Assembly (NCBI RefSeq): GCF_009746585.1
Contig: NZ_WRPO01000006.1
Coordinates: 186,001 to 250,000, forward strand
DNA: 64,000 bases
Origin: Novosphingobium aquimarinum
GTDB taxonomy: Bacteria; Pseudomonadota; Alphaproteobacteria; Sphingomonadales; Sphingomonadaceae
Direction: 5' to 3'
The notes under the pieces: model-generated
Database searches by the model: none
What the model saw: only the letters and a program-made list of their open reading frames with translations
Told to the model about the DNA's origin: nothing
Translations under genes and position numbers: made by a program
Shown: positions 7,511 through 23,866 of the stretch, one piece after another
How the letters are laid out: each line of letters opens with the position of its first letter
How positions within the stretch are numbered: position 1 is the stretch's first letter

Positions 7511-8263
7511 ATGACGAAGCGCACCATGATCGAACACGCCATACTCCTGAGCGCCGGCCAAGGCTCGCGCATGCTGCCGCTGACGGCGGAGCGCCCGAAG
7601 TGCCTGATCGACTTTTCCGGGCGCTCGCTGCTCGAATGGCAAGTCGAGATGCTGGCGCGCGGCGGCGTGAAGCGGATCGACGTGGTCACCGGCTTCATGA
7701 CCGACATGGTCGATGCCGTGATCGACCGGATCGACGATCCGCGGGTCACCATCACCACGCGGTTCAATCCATTCTACAAAGTCGCCGACAACCTCGGTTC
7801 GTGCTGGATCGCGCGCGACACGATGGACGGCGATTTCCTGATCCTCAACGGCGACACGCTGGTCTCCGAGCAGATCGTCGCGAAGGTTCAGGCAGGCTCC
7901 GACTGGCCCATCGCGGTGACGGTCGACGTCAAGGACGCCTACGACAGCGACGACATGAAAGTCACGCGCGGCCCCGACGGCCGCCTCGCCCGCATCGGCA
8001 AGACGCTCACCGCCGAGGAAAGCAACGCCGAATCGATCGGCTTCCTCGCCTTCCGCGGCGAAGGCGCCGAGCTGTTCCGCGAAGCCGTGCGCACCGCGAT
8101 GCGCACCCCCGAAGGCGTGCAGCACTGGTACCTCAAGGTCATCGACAGCCTCGCGCCGAGCGGCAAGGTCGGCACCACGTCGATCGAAGGGCTCGACTGG
8201 GCCGAAGTCGATTTCCTGAACGACATCGAGATCGCCACGGCCCTGACCGATCGCTGGGCCTAG
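7511..8263 (+). CDS. Sugar/polyol-phosphate nucleotidyltransferase
   Basis: A 250-residue NTP_transferase-fold enzyme that would join a nucleoside monophosphate to a phosphorylated sugar or polyol. The nucleotide loop is LLSAGQGSRMLPLT followed by ERPKCLIDF (GxGxR...PK), and LILNGDTLV gives the metal-binding Asp. The middle segment NPFYKVADNLGSCWIARD resembles choline-phosphate and inositol-phosphate cytidylyltransferases more than hexose-1-phosphate enzymes. ATG 7526 is an alternative start. It is divergent from the flippase. The CDP-alcohol transferase at 22296 is a conceivable downstream partner because in several organisms the two activities are fused (IPCT/DIPPS), but this is inference. 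Confidence 0.82.
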   Translation: MTKRTMIEHAILLSAGQGSRMLPLTAERPKCLIDFSGRSLLEWQVEMLARGGVKRIDVVTGFMTDMVDAVIDRIDDPRVTITTRFNPFYKVADNLGSCWIARDTMDGDFLILNGDTLVSEQIVAKVQAGSDWPIAVTVDVKDAYDSDDMKVTRGPDGRLARIGKTLTAEESNAESIGFLAFRGEGAELFREAVRTAMRTPEGVQHWYLKVIDSLAPSGKVGTTSIEGLDWAEVDFLNDIEIATALTDRWA

Positions 8264-18641: not shown

Positions 18642-18967
18642 GAGGCGGATCGAAGCTCCTTTCACAGGCGATTAAATCACCCCGACTCCGCCTAACAATA
18701 CGATCATGCCCGGTTTTCCACACGCAATCGCGAATTCGGCAATTCTCTTTGCCCGCCGAGCACCGCCAGGGACCAATTGGAGACGACGAACCGAGCGCCC
18801 TGCGCCATGAACCGACAATTCAGTCCTTATTCACTGGGATTTGTCTAGAACCGGGATGTTGAAACACTCGCCGGGACGAGCCAGCTCTCCTCCCGCACGG
18901 CCTGTGATCGGCGCGACCGCCGATCAAGGCGCGATGGACGATTTGAGAATTACGGGGTCTAGCTTTG
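18642..18967. other. Divergent intergenic region between rpe and DUF2141 gene
   Basis: This 326-bp stretch between two divergent genes should carry both promoters. I see no repeat, tRNA or convincing ORF in it. Confidence 0.4.
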
Positions 18968-19459
18968 ATGAACAAGTACCTTGCCGCTTGCGTGACCGGT
19001 ATCGCCGCCGTGGCGCTGACCAGCCCCGCCCCTGCGGCGGCGCAATACGGGCAGAAGATCGGAAACGACCTGTCGAAATGCTACAAGGGATCATCGTCGG
19101 CAGTGATGGTCACCGTGGACGGCGTCAAGAATTCGGTCGGCGAAGTGCGCGTGCAGGCGTATCGCGCGACGTCTGGCGACTGGCTCAAGAAGGGCCGCTG
19201 GCTCAACCGGATCGAGACGCGGGCCAAGAGCGGCTCGATGACCTTCTGCGTCCCGGTTCCGGGCCCCGGCAGCTATGCCATCGCCGTGCGACACGATGCC
19301 AACAACAACCACGAAACCGATATCACCGTCGATGGCGGCGGCATGTCGAACGATCCCAGCATCAACGTGTTCAACCTCGGCAAGCCGAGCGTGTCCAAGA
19401 CCGCCTTCACGGTCGGCAATGGCGTCAAGTCGATCCGGATCCAGATGAAGTACATGTGA
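18968..19459 (+). CDS. Exported DUF2141-family protein
   Basis: A 163-residue secreted protein. MNKYLAACVTGIAAVALTS with cleavage near PAAAQYG is a typical Sec signal. The mature part has the DUF2141 pattern: VMVTVDGVKNSVGEVRVQAY, FCVPVPGPGSYAIAVRHDANNN and ISVNVF-like INVFNLGKPS, which suggests a transthyretin-like beta fold. The biochemical role of the family is not known. The codon before the ATG is TTG, so a one-residue longer form is possible. The 3' end overlaps the convergent MobA-like gene by 35 bp. Confidence 0.85.
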   Translation: MNKYLAACVTGIAAVALTSPAPAAAQYGQKIGNDLSKCYKGSSSAVMVTVDGVKNSVGEVRVQAYRATSGDWLKKGRWLNRIETRAKSGSMTFCVPVPGPGSYAIAVRHDANNNHETDITVDGGGMSNDPSINVFNLGKPSVSKTAFTVGNGVKSIRIQMKYM

Positions 19460-20216
19460 TCGCGCGACGCGCGGCGGCGATCCTCCGCGCGTCGTCGAGA
19501 TCCTTGGGCCGATCGACATCGACGGCCGCGAGGCCATCGCGCGCGGCGACGGCCGCGGCCCTGAAGCCCAGCCGATCGCCCAGCCGCTGCACGGTATCGG
19601 CCAGCGTCAGCCGTCCGCGCCAATAGGCCCAGAGCGTCGCCGGACCCAGCCGGGCGGCGATCCGCCAGGGCCGCTTGCGGTCCGCTTCCACCATCGACCA
19701 GGTCGCGATCCCGTCGCGCGCGCCCTCGGTTGCCAGCAGGAACAGATTGCAGCCCGACCATTCACCGTCGGCAAAGCGCAAATACGTGCGGCGCGAGCCC
19801 GGCACGGCGCGCTCGATCGCTGCGCGATGCGCCAGCAGGATGGCGACGTCGGTACCGACGGGCGTGTCCGCAACGAAATCGGTGATCCAATCGGACTGCA
19901 ACAGCGCATGGTCCGCCGTCGTCACCAGCAGCGGCGCGCCGAGCAATTCGAACCCCGCCGCGACGCTCGCGCTCGGTCCTGCGCGCGCGGGCACCCATTC
20001 GCATTCCAGACGACGCGCCAGCGCTTCGACTTCGGGATGGTTCCCGGCCACCGCGCAGCGCGCGATCCCCGCCGCACGGATCGCCTCGACCACGCGTTGC
20101 AGCATCGGCTTGCCGTCGATCTCGGCCAGCGCCTTGTGCGCCACCCCTGCCGCCTCGGCCACGGGATCGGGCGCGCCCGGACGGGCGCCCGCGAGGACCA
20201 GCGCGGACAGGCTCAT
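19425..20216 (-). CDS. MobA-like nucleotidyltransferase
   Basis: A 263-residue NTP_transferase-domain protein. The N-terminal ALVLAGARPGAPDPVAEAAG is a modified GxxxGxG loop, HKALAEIDGKPMLQRVVEA gives the conserved Lys and GKP, and LLVTTADHALL is the metal-binding Asp segment (TTADH rather than the MobA LPGD). It is the last gene of a three-gene minus-strand operon with a Tam41-like protein (10-bp gap) and a lipid-kinase-like protein, so a CTP-dependent step in lipid or head-group activation is more likely than molybdopterin guanylylation. The substrate is not deducible. Confidence 0.75.
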   Translation of the reverse strand: MSLSALVLAGARPGAPDPVAEAAGVAHKALAEIDGKPMLQRVVEAIRAAGIARCAVAGNHPEVEALARRLECEWVPARAGPSASVAAGFELLGAPLLVTTADHALLQSDWITDFVADTPVGTDVAILLAHRAAIERAVPGSRRTYLRFADGEWSGCNLFLLATEGARDGIATWSMVEADRKRPWRIAARLGPATLWAYWRGRLTLADTVQRLGDRLGFRAAAVAARDGLAAVDVDRPKDLDDARRIAAARRAITCTSSGSGST

Positions 20217-20226
20217 AGCGGCTGGC

Positions 20227-21126
20227 TCATGCCCGGCTGCGCTTTGCCCGCCACAGCTTCCACAAGACCCCCGGTGCCGCGAGCATCGGATGGCGTTCGC
20301 GCCACGGCGTCAGCGGCACCGCCACGCCGGTGTGGCGCTCGATCTTCCACGCCGCATAGCGCGCCGCGCCTTCGAACGTGGTGGAGGCCTTGACCAGGCG
20401 GGCGAGGTTGTAGGGCCGGCCCGCCCGCCGCCGCCGGTGCCACCAGCGCAGCAGGCGTTGCCGTCGCTCCGGATCGAGGCGCGGCGTCAAGGTGCCCTGC
20501 GCGCCGCGCGCGAAATCGATGCCTTGCGCGATCAGCGCCAGCGGCAGCAGCCCGTCGAAATGCTCGCGATTGACCGCCAGGATCGAATCCTCGCGCCCCG
20601 CCTTCTCGACGCGGAATTCCGCAGCGTACGTCGCGCGAAACAAGGTTCGCCAGTATTCCTCGGGCGAAGCGCTCGGCGCGCCCAGCGCCACGGCGACGCG
20701 CGCACCGGTCTGCGCCGCGGCGCACACGGCGGCGGTCACGGCCTGGCGCGCAGACGGGGTGCGCGCGTAGACCAGGGCCGAGGGCTGCACGAAGCGCGTC
20801 CAGATCGTCGTGTCGATCGTCTCGCCCGCGGCAGCGGCGGCGAAGGTCTGCAGCGTCATCGTCGCGACTTTCGCGCGCAGCGTCACGCCGTCGATATCAT
20901 GCTCGTGGTAGCTGACGCGCGGCCAGATGCCGCGCTCCACCGGCCCGGGCAGCAGCACATAGAAGTCGAGCACCCCCTCGAGCGATCCAGTGCGGAGATT
21001 CGATCCGTAGAACACGGTGGCCAGGGCATCCTGCGCGACACCGAGCTGCGTGGCGAATGCGGCGACTTTCGGATCGACCGGTCGCGCCAGCGCGGTGGCG
21101 ATCCGCGCTTCCAGACCGTCGGTCAC
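20227..21126 (-). CDS. Tam41/Mmp37-like protein, putative CDP-DAG synthase
   Basis: A 299-residue protein starting at GTG 21126, which overlaps the lipid-kinase stop by 4 bp (GTGA). I see a nucleotidyltransferase-like core: TVFYGSNLRTGSLEGVLDFY at residues 37-56, where Tyr-Gly-Ser then Asp54-Phe matches the YGS...DF pattern of mitochondrial Tam41. RFVQPSALVYAR (111-122) and EEYWRTLFRATYAAEFRVE (156-174) occupy the positions of the KPV and LSYxGDxR segments of that family. Tam41 makes CDP-diacylglycerol from phosphatidic acid and CTP. The operon partners fit this. The match is by eye and the protein could be a divergent nucleotidyltransferase of other function. Confidence 0.55.
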   Translation of the reverse strand: MTDGLEARIATALARPVDPKVAAFATQLGVAQDALATVFYGSNLRTGSLEGVLDFYVLLPGPVERGIWPRVSYHEHDIDGVTLRAKVATMTLQTFAAAAAGETIDTTIWTRFVQPSALVYARTPSARQAVTAAVCAAAQTGARVAVALGAPSASPEEYWRTLFRATYAAEFRVEKAGREDSILAVNREHFDGLLPLALIAQGIDFARGAQGTLTPRLDPERRQRLLRWWHRRRRAGRPYNLARLVKASTTFEGAARYAAWKIERHTGVAVPLTPWRERHPMLAAPGVLWKLWRAKRSRA

Positions 21127-22199
21127 GGAACGACGAAGGCGAGCCGCGGCCCTTCCTCGACCAGATACCGGCCCGCGGGGAACGCTTCGCCATCGAGAAT
21201 GAAGGCAGCGCCCAGGTCGAAAGTATAAGGACCGCCCTCGAGGCGATGGCCGGCATTGCCGCCCCATCCTTCCATCGAGGACCCGAAGATGATCGCCGGC
21301 AGTCGGGCAAGGAAGCGCCGCACCGGATAATCGATGAGGCCCAGCTTGAGGCCCGCGCCGGCATTGCGTCCGAACGGCTTCGCGCCGAGCGGGAATTGCT
21401 CGAAGGTGGTCGCCACCGCGATGAAGCGCTCGTCCGGATTGCCGGTGTCGCCGTGCGGGACTTCCTGTCCGGTAGACCGGTCGACGATCCGCATCGGGGT
21501 GCACGAGCGCCAGATATTGCCGCGCCGACCGAAAAAGGACTGCACGATTACCCAGATCACTGCCAAGGCGACGGCGAAACTGCGGAAGGCACCATGGCGA
21601 TGCGCCGCCTGCGCGGTATCGGTCGCGCGCGTGAAGACGCCCGCGCCCATGAAGAAGCCCATCGCGCTGCCGCCTTGCCCGGCGGCGCCGGAGATCCGCA
21701 GCGGGCTGCGATGGGCGATGCGTCCACCCCGGGCCGCCGCGAGCGCTTCCGCCAGCGACCAGTGATCGGGGAGGCCCAGATCGATGGTGAGCGCGTTGGT
21801 CTTGCCTTTGGGCAGGATGATCAGGCGCGGCCAAATTCTGCCGAAGATCGCCTCGCCCGTGCTCAGCACGTCGCGCACTGTCCCGTCGCCGCCGTCGACC
21901 ACCAGGAAATCGATACCGCGCTCGGCAAACCCGGCGAGGCAAGCGTGCAGCGCCTCGCGCGTCCGCGGCGTTTCGATCAGGATGTTGGAGCAATCGGCAA
22001 GTTCGGGATCGCGGCCCTTGTTGCGATGGCTGCGCGGATTGCGCACGATCCCGACCAGCGGAACCGCGCGCCCACGCGGCGCATAGCGACCGGCACGCGC
22101 CAAAGGCACGGCGGGCTGCTCGAAGAGGCGCAGGGTGTCGATTTCGTAAGCGGATCCGTGCACAGCGGGCCATGTAGACACGGAACTATCAAAAATCAT
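21123..22199 (-). CDS. Diacylglycerol-kinase-like lipid kinase
   Basis: A 358-residue protein of the DAGK catalytic-domain family, which phosphorylates diacylglycerol, sphingoid bases or related lipids. VGIVRNPRSHRNKG is the first conserved block and FLVVDGGDGTVRDVLS carries the GGDGT nucleotide motif. LIILPKGKTNALTIDLGLP corresponds to the usual LPxGTxND block, with GKTNAL in place of GTxNDFA. About 50 residues precede the domain. First gene of the operon with the Tam41-like and MobA-like genes, divergent from the CDP-alcohol transferase; the 96-bp AT-rich spacer (22200-22295) should hold both promoters. Confidence 0.85.
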   Translation of the reverse strand: MIFDSSVSTWPAVHGSAYEIDTLRLFEQPAVPLARAGRYAPRGRAVPLVGIVRNPRSHRNKGRDPELADCSNILIETPRTREALHACLAGFAERGIDFLVVDGGDGTVRDVLSTGEAIFGRIWPRLIILPKGKTNALTIDLGLPDHWSLAEALAAARGGRIAHRSPLRISGAAGQGGSAMGFFMGAGVFTRATDTAQAAHRHGAFRSFAVALAVIWVIVQSFFGRRGNIWRSCTPMRIVDRSTGQEVPHGDTGNPDERFIAVATTFEQFPLGAKPFGRNAGAGLKLGLIDYPVRRFLARLPAIIFGSSMEGWGGNAGHRLEGGPYTFDLGAAFILDGEAFPAGRYLVEEGPRLAFVVP

Positions 22200-22295: not shown

Positions 22296-23426
22296 ATGAA
22301 CGAGCGCAGCGAGACACTTCAGGTCGAATTCGTCGGCACCAATCCGACGAAGCTTTGGGGCCTCACCCTGGCGGAGCGAACGCGCCGGCTATCCGCGGCC
22401 GCCGGATTCGACTGGGTCGAACGCGTCTCGGCGAGCCATGGGCTCCTCGTCAACGCGACGTTTGCCTGCGATCCGGCGTGGTTTCGCCATGTCGCGCAGC
22501 ATCCGGGCACGATGCTCGCGTTCGAGGGGGTTCCCGCGCTAGCGCACGTCCGCTCCGAGTCCGAAGCGGCCGAAGTGCGCGAGGCGATGCGGACGGATCG
22601 GCCATGCGCCGCGACCGCCCTCGAGACGCTGGAGTATACCGAGGGCCCGACCATCGAGGACAAGGCGCTGCGCAAGCGCGAGACTCCGTTCCTGATGCCG
22701 CTGCGCCCCGACACGGTCCGCCCGATCGAGCGCGCCAGCTACTTCGGCGCCTACAAGGGCGTCACCGACATCCTGACGAAGTACCTGTGGCCCGAGTGGG
22801 CGCTGGTGCTGACCCGGATTGCCGCGCGCATCGGCATGACGCCCAACATGGTCACCGCGATCGGGGCCACGCTTTGCGTCGTTGCCACTGTGTGCTTCGC
22901 TTACGGCTGGTACTGGACCGGGATGGCGACGGGTCTCGGATTCATGGTGCTCGACACCGTGGACGGCAAGCTGGCGCGCTGCACGGTCACGTCCTCGTGG
23001 TGGGGCAATATCTTCGATCATGGCATCGATCTGGTCCATCCGCCCTTCTGGTGGTGGTTCTGGGCAACGGGGCTTGCCGCGTGGGGCCTCGCCTACGACA
23101 CCGCGACGTTCTGGTGGGTCCAGGGCGCGATCCAGATCGGCTATGTCGTGCAGCGCGTGATCGAAGGCATCTTCATCCGCCGCCACAAGATGCACATCCA
23201 CATCTGGCGCCGGTTCGACAGCCGGTTCCGCCTCATCACCGCGCGACGCAATCCGAACATGGTGATATTGTTCGTCAGCACGCTGGTGCTGCGCCCCGAT
23301 CTGGGCCTGATCGCGGTGGCGTGGTGGACGGTGCTGTCCTGCCTCGTCCATGCCGTCCGCCTGGTGCAGGCCGAAGCGGCCATGCGGCGCAACGGGCCGC
23401 TCACATCCTGGCTCGCCGAAACCTGA
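22296..23426 (+). CDS. CDP-alcohol phosphatidyltransferase with N-terminal extension
   Basis: A 376-residue integral membrane enzyme that moves a phospho-alcohol from a CDP-activated donor to an acceptor alcohol. The full signature D-x2-DG-x2-AR-x8-G-x3-D-x3-D is visible, beginning LDTVDGKLAR and ending GNIFDHGID. About 150 soluble residues precede it (WGLTLAERTRRL, then KRETPF and SYFGAYKGVTDILTKYLWP). This layout recalls the bifunctional inositol-phosphate enzymes in which a cytidylyltransferase is fused to such a domain, but the usual GxGxR nucleotide loop is missing here. Cotranscribed with the HIT-like gene 14 bp downstream. Donor and acceptor are unknown. Confidence 0.85.
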   Translation: MNERSETLQVEFVGTNPTKLWGLTLAERTRRLSAAAGFDWVERVSASHGLLVNATFACDPAWFRHVAQHPGTMLAFEGVPALAHVRSESEAAEVREAMRTDRPCAATALETLEYTEGPTIEDKALRKRETPFLMPLRPDTVRPIERASYFGAYKGVTDILTKYLWPEWALVLTRIAARIGMTPNMVTAIGATLCVVATVCFAYGWYWTGMATGLGFMVLDTVDGKLARCTVTSSWWGNIFDHGIDLVHPPFWWWFWATGLAAWGLAYDTATFWWVQGAIQIGYVVQRVIEGIFIRRHKMHIHIWRRFDSRFRLITARRNPNMVILFVSTLVLRPDLGLIAVAWWTVLSCLVHAVRLVQAEAAMRRNGPLTSWLAET

Positions 23427-23440
23427 AGGAGACGAGACCG

Positions 23441-23866
23441 ATGAACCCCACGATCGAGAAATTCGGCTTTCCGCAATCGCTGGTGGCCGAATTCGACCAC
23501 TGGGTCGTCCTCGCCCGTCCCGCGCAGCCGACGCTGGGCTCGCTGGTGCTGGCGGCGCGATCCGCCGCGACTGCGTTCGGCGAATTGCCGGCAGAAGCGC
23601 ATGCCGAGCTGAAGACGGTCACCGCCGCGATCGAGGCGGCGCTGTCCGAGGCGGTCGATTACGCCAAGATCAACTACCTGATGCTGATGATGGTCGACCA
23701 CGAAGTGCACTTCCACGTCATCCCGCGCTACGACGGCGCGCGCGAGTGGGAGAGCCGCGAATTCGTCGATGTCGGCTGGCCCAAAGTGCCCGACCTCGGT
23801 CACGCCGTCGCGCTGGAACGCGAGGATCTGATGAAGCTGGTCGAGTGGCTGAAGGGCTACTTCTGA
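23441..23866 (+). CDS. HIT-like (histidine-triad) protein
   Basis: A 141-residue protein of the HIT superfamily, which hydrolyses or transfers nucleotidyl groups. HEVHFHVIPRY at residues 87-97 aligns with the HxHxHxxPR motif: the middle and last histidines (90, 92) are kept, while the first position is Glu88. The middle histidine is the catalytic one in the family, so activity is possible. AAGGAG lies 9 bp upstream of the ATG. It follows the CDP-alcohol transferase closely, so it may act on a CDP-linked intermediate. Confidence 0.8.
   Translation: MNPTIEKFGFPQSLVAEFDHWVVLARPAQPTLGSLVLAARSAATAFGELPAEAHAELKTVTAAIEAALSEAVDYAKINYLMLMMVDHEVHFHVIPRYDGAREWESREFVDVGWPKVPDLGHAVALEREDLMKLVEWLKGYF

What the first reader, a model, noticed from the sequence alone, without database searches (positions are those of the whole stretch)
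20227..21126. Bacterial Tam41-like protein inside a lipid operon
Seen: YGS...DF nucleotidyltransferase core, a QP-containing segment and an LFxxxYxxEFR segment in the order found in mitochondrial Tam41. The gene is translationally coupled to a lipid-kinase-like gene. Known: Tam41 makes CDP-diacylglycerol in mitochondria and is unrelated to bacterial CdsA. Inference: this alphaproteobacterial protein may be a CdsA-independent CDP-lipid synthase and possibly related to the ancestor of the mitochondrial enzyme.
Basis: partly seen in the sequence, partly recalled or inferred. Interest (0 to 1): 0.8.

Follow-up and report, generated by a model that had tools for sequence, protein, structure and literature searches.

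The report
Tam41-like enzyme in bacterial sphingolipid operon
This bacterial gene makes a protein folded like the mitochondrial enzyme Tam41 and sits with genes that build phosphorylated sphingolipids, so it probably activates a ceramide lipid for head-group attachment, a step whose chemistry is still unknown.

Summary
The protein is real: minus strand, 299 codons, coupled to the upstream kinase gene by a 4-base overlap. Pfam and NCBIfam give it no hit, but a confident AlphaFold2 model (pLDDT 89) has Tam41 as its closest solved fold (VIA-align Z 17.0, 16.0, 15.4; next entry 7.3). One homologue from another class scores just under the Pfam Tam41 cut-off (21.8 against 24 bits). The presumed catalytic Asp is kept in 147 of 147 homologues, the Ser in 144.

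The operon is more specific than 'lipid'. In a genome recognised as Caulobacter by published cpgD primers, the homologue (51% identical) holds the place of CC_1161, that is CpgC, in the sphingolipid cluster. Homologues of CpgA, CpgB (ceramide kinase) and CpgD are also in the window. All 34 carriers among 289 alphaproteobacterial genomes have serine palmitoyltransferase.

Most likely it is the CpgC orthologue and a CTP:ceramide-1-phosphate cytidylyltransferase (CDP-ceramide synthase), not a CDP-diacylglycerol synthase; the genome has CdsA. Recent papers say CpgC acts by an 'unidentified mechanism'; one already suggested NDP-ceramide. Descent of mitochondrial Tam41 from this family is not supported. 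No enzyme activity has been shown.

The parts
20227..21126 (-). CpgC/CC_1161 orthologue; Tam41-like nucleotidyltransferase, 299 aa, GTG start; proposed CTP:ceramide-1-phosphate cytidylyltransferase
   Evidence: AF2 model and fold search; 51% identity to the protein at the CC_1161 position in a Caulobacter cluster; residue conservation
21123..22199 (-). CpgB-like lipid kinase (DAGK catalytic domain), proposed ceramide kinase; 4-base overlap with the next gene
   Evidence: PF00781 E 1.3e-8; a match to its profile in 35 of 35 genomes that carry the Tam41-like gene, of 61 relatives; same position as CC_1160
19425..20216 (-). MobA/CofC-like NTP transferase, homologue of CC_1153, 10 bases downstream of the Tam41-like gene
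   Evidence: PF12804 E 7.5e-17; CofC model TIGR03552 E 2e-5, under its cut-off; homologue at the CC_1153 position in L190 and other clusters
22296..23426 (+). CpgA-like CDP-alcohol phosphotransferase, divergent from the kinase
   Evidence: PF01066 E 2.9e-7; profile of cluster members E 1.1e-156, the window protein being one of the rows it was built from
23441..23866 (+). HIT-family protein also found inside the clusters
   Evidence: PF01230 E 0.0061, under the cut-off; blastp to four cluster HIT proteins E 1.9e-43 to 1.5e-45; start chosen
18965..19459 (+). DUF2141 protein with a signal-like N-terminus, recurrent neighbour
   Evidence: PF09912 E 3.2e-22; the signal-like N-terminus is read by eye
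7511..8263 (+). CpgD-like cytidylyltransferase (CDP-glycerate synthase homologue)
   Evidence: 50.6% identity over 243 aa, E 1.2e-78, to cpgD of the Caulobacter locus L190; same gene found in the genome search

Best explanation
The protein is the orthologue of CpgC (CC_1161, CCNA_01219) of the ceramide (di)phosphoglycerate pathway, a nucleotidyltransferase-fold enzyme of the Tam41 kind. After the coupled kinase (CpgB) makes ceramide-1-phosphate, it most likely moves CMP from CTP onto that phosphate, giving CDP-ceramide and pyrophosphate. A CDP-alcohol phosphotransferase would then exchange the CMP for glycerate or phosphoglycerate to give ceramide phosphoglycerate (CPG); CpgA and CpgD add the second unit. 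Shown here: fold, homology to Tam41, conserved active-site pattern, orthology by position and identity, and linkage to ceramide genes. Taken from published genetics: CpgC is needed for CPG, while CpgA and CpgD are not. Inferred: CTP as donor, ceramide-1-phosphate as acceptor, CDP-ceramide as product, and the later transfer step.
For: Fold: the five best Foldseek matches in the PDB are all Tam41 (E 6.6e-8 to 2.5e-6). VIA-align Z is 17.0 for 7ecd (rmsd 3.2, 217 aligned), 16.0 for 6ig4 and 15.4 for 6ig2, then 7.3 for an aminoglycoside nucleotidyltransferase. Sequence: homologue L116 reaches PF09139 at E 1.4e-4, 21.8 bits; hhalign P 2.5e-5 with controls. Context: locus L190 has AasR-CerR-ACP-SPT-(this)-kinase-CDP-alcohol transferase-phosphoesterase-HIT/DUF2141-LptF2-LptG2-(CerS position)-NTP-cpgD, which fits the gene assignments published for CC_1165 to CC_1152 (PMC11324152). 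In 30 hand-chosen regions with the gene the kinase is its direct neighbour in 27, and SPT follows in convergent orientation within 3 kb in 22. All 34 carriers among 289 genomes have SPT, against 6 of the other 255. In the window's genus the kinase and this gene are in the same 15 of 37 genomes. Logic from print: CPG is still made without CpgD, hence without its CDP-glycerate (PMC12275187), and CC_1160 alone restores CPG in a CC_1159/CC_1160 double mutant (PMC11324152). So the lipid side, not the head group, should be the activated partner in the first step.
Against: No activity has been measured for any member, as far as the papers seen say. The window protein and the 22 rows of A1 get no PF09139 hit, and L116 stays under the curated cut-off. 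Foldseek TM-scores to Tam41 are only 0.48 to 0.59 with rmsd 4.6 to 8.1. The Tam41 profile passes hmmsearch's inclusion line for 7 of 147 family members. This family lacks the long Tam41 segment with WHxxNxxxNPxxYS and has Glu where Tam41 has Asp in the YxxDxR motif. The enzyme that would use CDP-ceramide to make CPG is unknown, since CPG forms without CpgA. PMC11324152 reports only moderately raised ceramide in the CC_1161 mutant, and in the parts read I saw no report of ceramide-1-phosphate build-up. In the window's own genome the SPT gene lies about 104 kb away, not in the operon. Linked genes are not independent evidence for the substrate.
Confidence: 0.6

Rival explanations
1. It is a true CDP-diacylglycerol synthase, a second, Tam41-type route from phosphatidate that supplies a special phospholipid pool.
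For: Closest solved folds are CDP-diacylglycerol synthases; the CDP-alcohol transferase next door resembles phosphatidylinositol-phosphate synthase most (NF045883 E 3.8e-13, 49.6 bits, under its cut-off of 170).
Against: The genome has a CdsA-type gene. All 34 carriers among 289 genomes have SPT. The coupled kinase is orthologous by position to a ceramide kinase whose loss leaves phosphatidate levels unchanged (PMC10331486, passages). The Caulobacter CC_1161 mutant loses ceramide phosphoglycerates (PMC11324152).
Confidence: 0.12
2. It joins a glycerate unit to ceramide-1-phosphate directly, without a free CDP-ceramide, as the published pathway drawing implies.
For: Published schemes put CpgC alone between ceramide-1-phosphate and CPG (PMC12275187; PMC13228409, passages); no dedicated partner transferase for CPG is known from the papers seen.
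Against: PMC11324152 calls direct attachment energetically not very favourable. The intact nucleotidyltransferase motif and the close match to Tam41 structures, two of the three entries with CTP, argue for a nucleotide step.
Confidence: 0.15
3. It uses another nucleotide or another acceptor, for example a phosphoglycerate, or is a scaffold partner of the kinase.
For: The nucleotidyltransferase fold serves many acceptors; aminoglycoside and other nucleotidyltransferases are the next fold matches.
Against: Invariant catalytic-type Asp and near-invariant Ser; the next fold match aligns about 40% of the protein at Z 7.3, Tam41 about 70% at Z 15 to 17.
Confidence: 0.1

Closest known systems
CpgC / CC_1161 / CCNA_01219 of Caulobacter crescentus
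   Same: 51% identity between the window protein and the protein at this position in a close Caulobacter relative; homologues of the ceramide kinase CpgB, of CpgA, CC_1153 and CpgD are all in the window
   Different: In the window's genome the head-group genes are split (cpgD-like gene about 11 kb off) and SPT is about 104 kb away; the C. crescentus protein itself was not fetched, and the lipid has not been looked for in this organism
Tam41/TAMM41 (PF09139), mitochondrial and Firmicutes CDP-diacylglycerol synthase
   Same: Fold match over 206-217 residues, reaching beyond the nucleotidyltransferase domain, Z 15.4-17.0; shared GS, D, K, R-F-x-x-P and Y-x-x-[D/E]-x-R positions
   Different: 12-13% identity; no PF09139 hit; lacks the WHxxN...HYS segment; Glu for Asp; tied to ceramide genes, not to cardiolipin synthesis
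CdsA (PF01148)
   Same: The proposed reaction type, CTP to a lipid phosphate
   Different: [quoted passage not shown] a separate CdsA-type gene is in the same genome
CpgD, CTP:phosphoglycerate cytidylyltransferase
   Same: Same pathway and proposed nucleotide
   Different: Different family; acts on the water-soluble head group (PMC12275187)

Membership tests
Tam41_Mmp37 (PF09139) | Score over the curated Pfam cut-off (24 bits) | tested here: not met
   Window protein and the 22 rows of A1: no PF09139 hit at E 10; best relative tested, L116, 21.8 bits; genome scans with PF09139 gave nothing over cut-off in 299 and 40 genomes
Tam41_Mmp37 (PF09139) | Tam41 fold: nucleotidyltransferase plus winged helix (domain split from PMC7018664, section read) | tested here: met
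   Z 17.0, 16.0, 15.4 over 206-217 residues, model residues 15-251 for 7ecd; next entry 7.3. Residues after about 251 are not covered
Tam41_Mmp37 (PF09139) | GS...D nucleotidyltransferase motif with conserved Ser and Asp | tested here: met
   D54 in 147 of 147, S42 in 144 of 147 homologues. That these are the catalytic residues is recalled, not taken from a call
Tam41_Mmp37 (PF09139) | CTP:phosphatidate cytidylyltransferase activity | not testable with these tools
   Needs an enzyme assay
CpgC orthologues | Position between the ceramide kinase gene and spt in the published Caulobacter cluster | tested here: met
   L190 has the family between kinase and SPT, with cpgD placed by six of eight published primers at 0-2 mismatches; window protein 51% identical to its product. 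In the window itself SPT is not adjacent
CpgC orthologues | Required for ceramide phosphoglycerate | not testable with these tools
   Known for C. crescentus from print (PMC11324152); not known for this organism
CdsA (PF01148) | CTP_transf_1 domain | tested here: not met
   No Pfam hit for the protein at E 10
Aminoglycoside nucleotidyltransferases | Whole-protein fold match | tested here: inconclusive
   Z 7.3 over 118-120 residues, far under Tam41

The most novel reading that the evidence does not exclude
The CpgC family is a CTP:ceramide-1-phosphate cytidylyltransferase, so bacterial phosphosphingolipids are built through CDP-ceramide, an activated sphingolipid parallel to CDP-diacylglycerol, by a branch of the Tam41 fold. 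The Tam41 fold would then have split into a glycerolipid branch (mitochondria, some Firmicutes) and a sphingolipid branch (Pseudomonadota).
Probability: 0.55. Interest if true: 0.75.

Novelty: new variant of a known kind. Interest (0 to 1): 0.58.

Why it matters
Papers of 2025 and 2026 still draw the CpgC step as acting through an unidentified mechanism (PMC12275187; PMC13228409). A tested fold and homology link to Tam41 turns that gap into a one-tube test, CTP plus ceramide-1-phosphate. If it holds, CDP-ceramide would be a new activated-lipid intermediate and would explain how these bacteria attach the first head group to ceramide; viability of Caulobacter without lipopolysaccharide depends in part on the resulting lipid (PMC12275187). 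It would also show that the Tam41 fold is not confined to cardiolipin supply.

Tried and rejected
Led nowhere: Pfam and NCBIfam annotation of the single protein (nothing); phmmer and hmmsearch of the PDB sequences with the protein or A1 (one chance-level hit each, E 0.16 and 0.23, the latter a nucleotidyltransferase-domain chain). Rejected: descent of mitochondrial Tam41 from this family. No tree with mitochondrial sequences was built, because only three Tam41 sequences were at hand. The Firmicutes Tam41 segment searched on plasmids gave no match. A first SPT co-occurrence count with NF047603 at E 1e-150 was too strict (13 of 289) and was replaced by a profile of cluster SPTs at E 1e-130. The kinase profile at E 1e-20 also rings in four genomes without the Tam41-like gene, with weaker scores than most. 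A primer search in the genus of G327 found nothing in 40 genomes and none in the 189 loci then held. The neighbour components labelled x461, x404, ELM1, x465, x280 and 'LptC2?163' mostly overlap other genes, often on the other strand; most are probably spurious frames and they were not used. Of 182 homologue hits, those with short matches and exact duplicates were dropped, leaving 147.

Prior print: 'CDP-ceramide' occurs in 0 papers of the library, Tam41 with Caulobacter in 0, Tam41 with ceramide-1-phosphate and cytidylyltransferase in 0. This covers open-licence PMC papers only. PMC11324152 (section 13 read) already proposes an NDP-activated ceramide made by CC_1161 on the basis of an InterPro domain that suggests a CDP-diacylglycerol synthase.

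Full report
Observation. The finding's interval 20227-21126 carries, on the minus strand, an open frame of 299 codons starting with GTG. The GTG overlaps the TGA of the upstream kinase-like gene (22199-21123) by four bases, and an NTP-transferase-like gene (20216-19425) follows after 10 bases. Pfam and NCBIfam report no family for the protein.

Fold and homology. An AlphaFold2 model built from the window protein and 72 of the 80 relatives kept by the search for related loci has mean pLDDT 89.2 and pTM 0.87. In the PDB the five best Foldseek matches are Tam41 of S. pombe and of a Firmicutes bacterium, E 6.6e-8 to 2.5e-6, TM-scores 0.48 to 0.59. A second alignment gives Z 17.0 (7ecd, 217 residues, rmsd 3.2), 16.0 (6ig4) and 15.4 (6ig2); the next entry, an aminoglycoside nucleotidyltransferase, has 7.3. 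By sequence the link is weak but stands above controls. One homologue from another class of Pseudomonadota (L116) matches PF09139 with E 1.4e-4 and 21.8 bits, just under the curated 24; the window protein and the 22 rows of A1 show no such match. The family profile against three Tam41 sequences gives hhalign score 42.0, P 2.5e-5, probability 75%; 100 column-shuffled controls reach at most 22.9, the reversed control 11.9, and SPT or kinase profiles at most 20.9. By hmmsearch the yeast sequence (recalled from memory) scores 17.6 bits, S. pombe 8.8 and the Firmicutes one 3.6, against a best of 6.3 in shuffled Tam41 sequences (1677 of 3000 shuffles were reported at all), so on this measure alone the Firmicutes sequence does not stand out. 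The reverse search, a three-sequence Tam41 profile against the 147 family members, passes the inclusion line for 7, best 17.0 bits. Differences from Tam41: the WHxxN...HYS segment is missing, the acid of the Y-x-x-[D/E]-x-R motif is Glu, and the Gln near R-F-x-x-P is one place off.

What the operon is. I mapped 30 hand-chosen regions with the gene: 20 and 10 (that call took 12 stretches; L191 and L193 do not contain the gene). The kinase is the direct neighbour in 17 of 20 and 10 of 10; SPT follows in convergent orientation, starting within 3 kb of the gene's start, in 15 of 20 and 7 of 10. Two of the first 20 regions are cut short by contig ends. Representatives of the recurrent neighbours were named by NCBIfam or Pfam as SPT, acyl carrier protein, fatty acyl-AMP ligase, an epimerase-type dehydrogenase (CerR position), LptF and LptG, metallophosphoesterase and fatty acid hydroxylase. 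This is the ceramide and ceramide-phosphoglycerate cluster of Caulobacter crescentus. I then recognised a Caulobacter genome among the unnamed ones: six of the eight published C. crescentus cpgD primers match its locus L190 with 0 to 2 mismatches within about 1.1 kb, and the primer pair for the coding sequence falls on the ends of one frame; the other two primers do not match well (4 and 5 mismatches). L190 has the gene order AasR, CerR, ACP, SPT, this family, kinase, CDP-alcohol transferase, phosphoesterase, HIT with a DUF2141 gene, LptF2, LptG2, a protein at the CerS position (no Pfam match for its family), NTP transferase, cpgD. PMC11324152 (outline, introduction, part 1 of 2 of section 8, sections 9 and 13 read) names CC_1164 CerR, CC_1162 spt, CC_1161 the CPG gene, CC_1160 ceramide kinase, CC_1159 the CDP-alcohol domain protein, CC_1158 a phosphoesterase, CC_1156 and CC_1155 LptF2 and LptG2, CC_1154 CerS, CC_1153 CofC-like, CC_1152 a nucleotidyltransferase. 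The family therefore sits at CC_1161; since CC_1160 and CCNA_01218 are the same kinase, CC_1161 is CCNA_01219, CpgC (inference from two papers). Which of HIT and DUF2141 is CC_1157 I could not tell. The window protein is 51% identical to the L190 protein over 296 columns. The C. crescentus protein itself was not fetched.

The window carries the head-group set: CpgA-like (22296-23426), CpgB-like (21123-22199), this CpgC-like gene, a CC_1153-like gene (19425-20216) and a CpgD-like gene (7511-8263; 50.6% identity over 243 aa). SPT lies on the same contig about 104 kb away. In print S. wittichii has these orthologues spread over six regions, so the scatter is ordinary for the order.

Distribution. 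The family is in 34 of 289 Alphaproteobacteria sampled. All 34 also have SPT by a profile of cluster SPTs at E 1e-130, against 6 of the remaining 255. In 398 Pseudomonadota genomes it is in 27, two of them outside the class. In 61 relatives it is in 35, all with a kinase match; the kinase profile also rings in 4 without it. Within the window's genus the two genes are in the same 15 of 37 genomes. Of 17 plasmid records with the gene, 15 were listed, and 14 of these 15 also appear in the SPT list. These counts say that the gene is an add-on to ceramide synthesis. They do not by themselves name the substrate, and linked genes are not independent evidence.

Mechanism. Published genetics: CpgB makes ceramide-1-phosphate; CpgC is needed for CPG; CpgD makes CDP-glycerate and, like CpgA, is needed for CPG2 but not CPG (PMC12275187, parts 1 and 2 of 4 read; PMC11324152). 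CPG forms without CDP-glycerate, so the phosphodiester in the first step should come from an activated ceramide phosphate. A Tam41-fold nucleotidyltransferase in exactly that place points to CTP plus ceramide-1-phosphate giving CDP-ceramide. PMC11324152 already floated an NDP-ceramide from an InterPro domain in CC_1161; its main text does not contain the word Tam41. PMC12275187 and PMC13228409 (passages) leave the mechanism open. What is new here is the tested Tam41 fold and homology, the placement of this window's gene, and a definite reaction to test. Not shown: any activity, the nucleotide, the lipid, or the enzyme that uses CDP-ceramide.

The genome has a CdsA-type gene (PF01148, E 2.9e-45, over cut-off), so phospholipid synthesis should not need this protein. 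A special tie to the mitochondrial enzyme is not seen: mitochondrial and Firmicutes Tam41 are close to each other and far from this family, and PF09139 is over its cut-off in 0 of 299 Pseudomonadota and 0 of 40 genomes of the order.

Verdict. Observation confirmed, interpretation partly supported. The gene is a CpgC orthologue and most likely a CDP-ceramide synthase of Tam41 type (0.6).

Noticed in passing
window 18965-19459; L171, L178, L180, L181, L188, L198, L199, L200; L207: A DUF2141 protein with a signal-like N-terminus recurs beside the kinase and Tam41-like genes: directly upstream of the kinase in 8 of the 30 mapped regions, convergent in the window. Its part in the sphingolipid pathway is not described in the sections I read.
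   Followed up: partly
L174, L187, L194; also L204 (1908-3116 and 6871-8004): Some clusters hold two CDP-alcohol phosphotransferase genes; the second is a candidate for the missing enzyme that would use CDP-ceramide to make the first head-group bond.
   Followed up: no
L204 and L206 (NZ_CP065408.1, Diaphorobacter sp. JS3051 plasmid pDCB2): What looks like a whole ceramide and ceramide-phosphoglycerate cluster (SPT-like, ACP, acyl-AMP ligase, two LptF/LptG permeases, Tam41-like gene, kinase) lies on an IncP plasmid typed as conjugative, with a Tn3-family transposase on one side and arsenate and mercury genes on the other: sphingolipid synthesis on a mobile element in a betaproteobacterium.
   Followed up: partly
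L207 (NZ_CP061179.1) and 12 other Roseomonas plasmid records: In Roseomonas the same gene sits on large plasmids; in L207 the cluster order is nearly that of the Caulobacter locus, including DUF2141 beside HIT.
   Followed up: partly
window 22296-23426: The CpgA-like protein has about 170-180 residues before its CDP-alcohol transferase domain with no Pfam match; the domain itself resembles phosphatidylinositol-phosphate synthase models, under their cut-offs.
   Followed up: no
L208 (NZ_MG591698.1, E. coli record labelled plasmid): An SPT-like gene with acyl-AMP ligase, epimerase, ACP and lptF/lptG-like genes stands beside yghO and yghS in E. coli, without a kinase or Tam41-like gene named in the annotated stretch: a ceramide-type set with different neighbours.
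   Followed up: no
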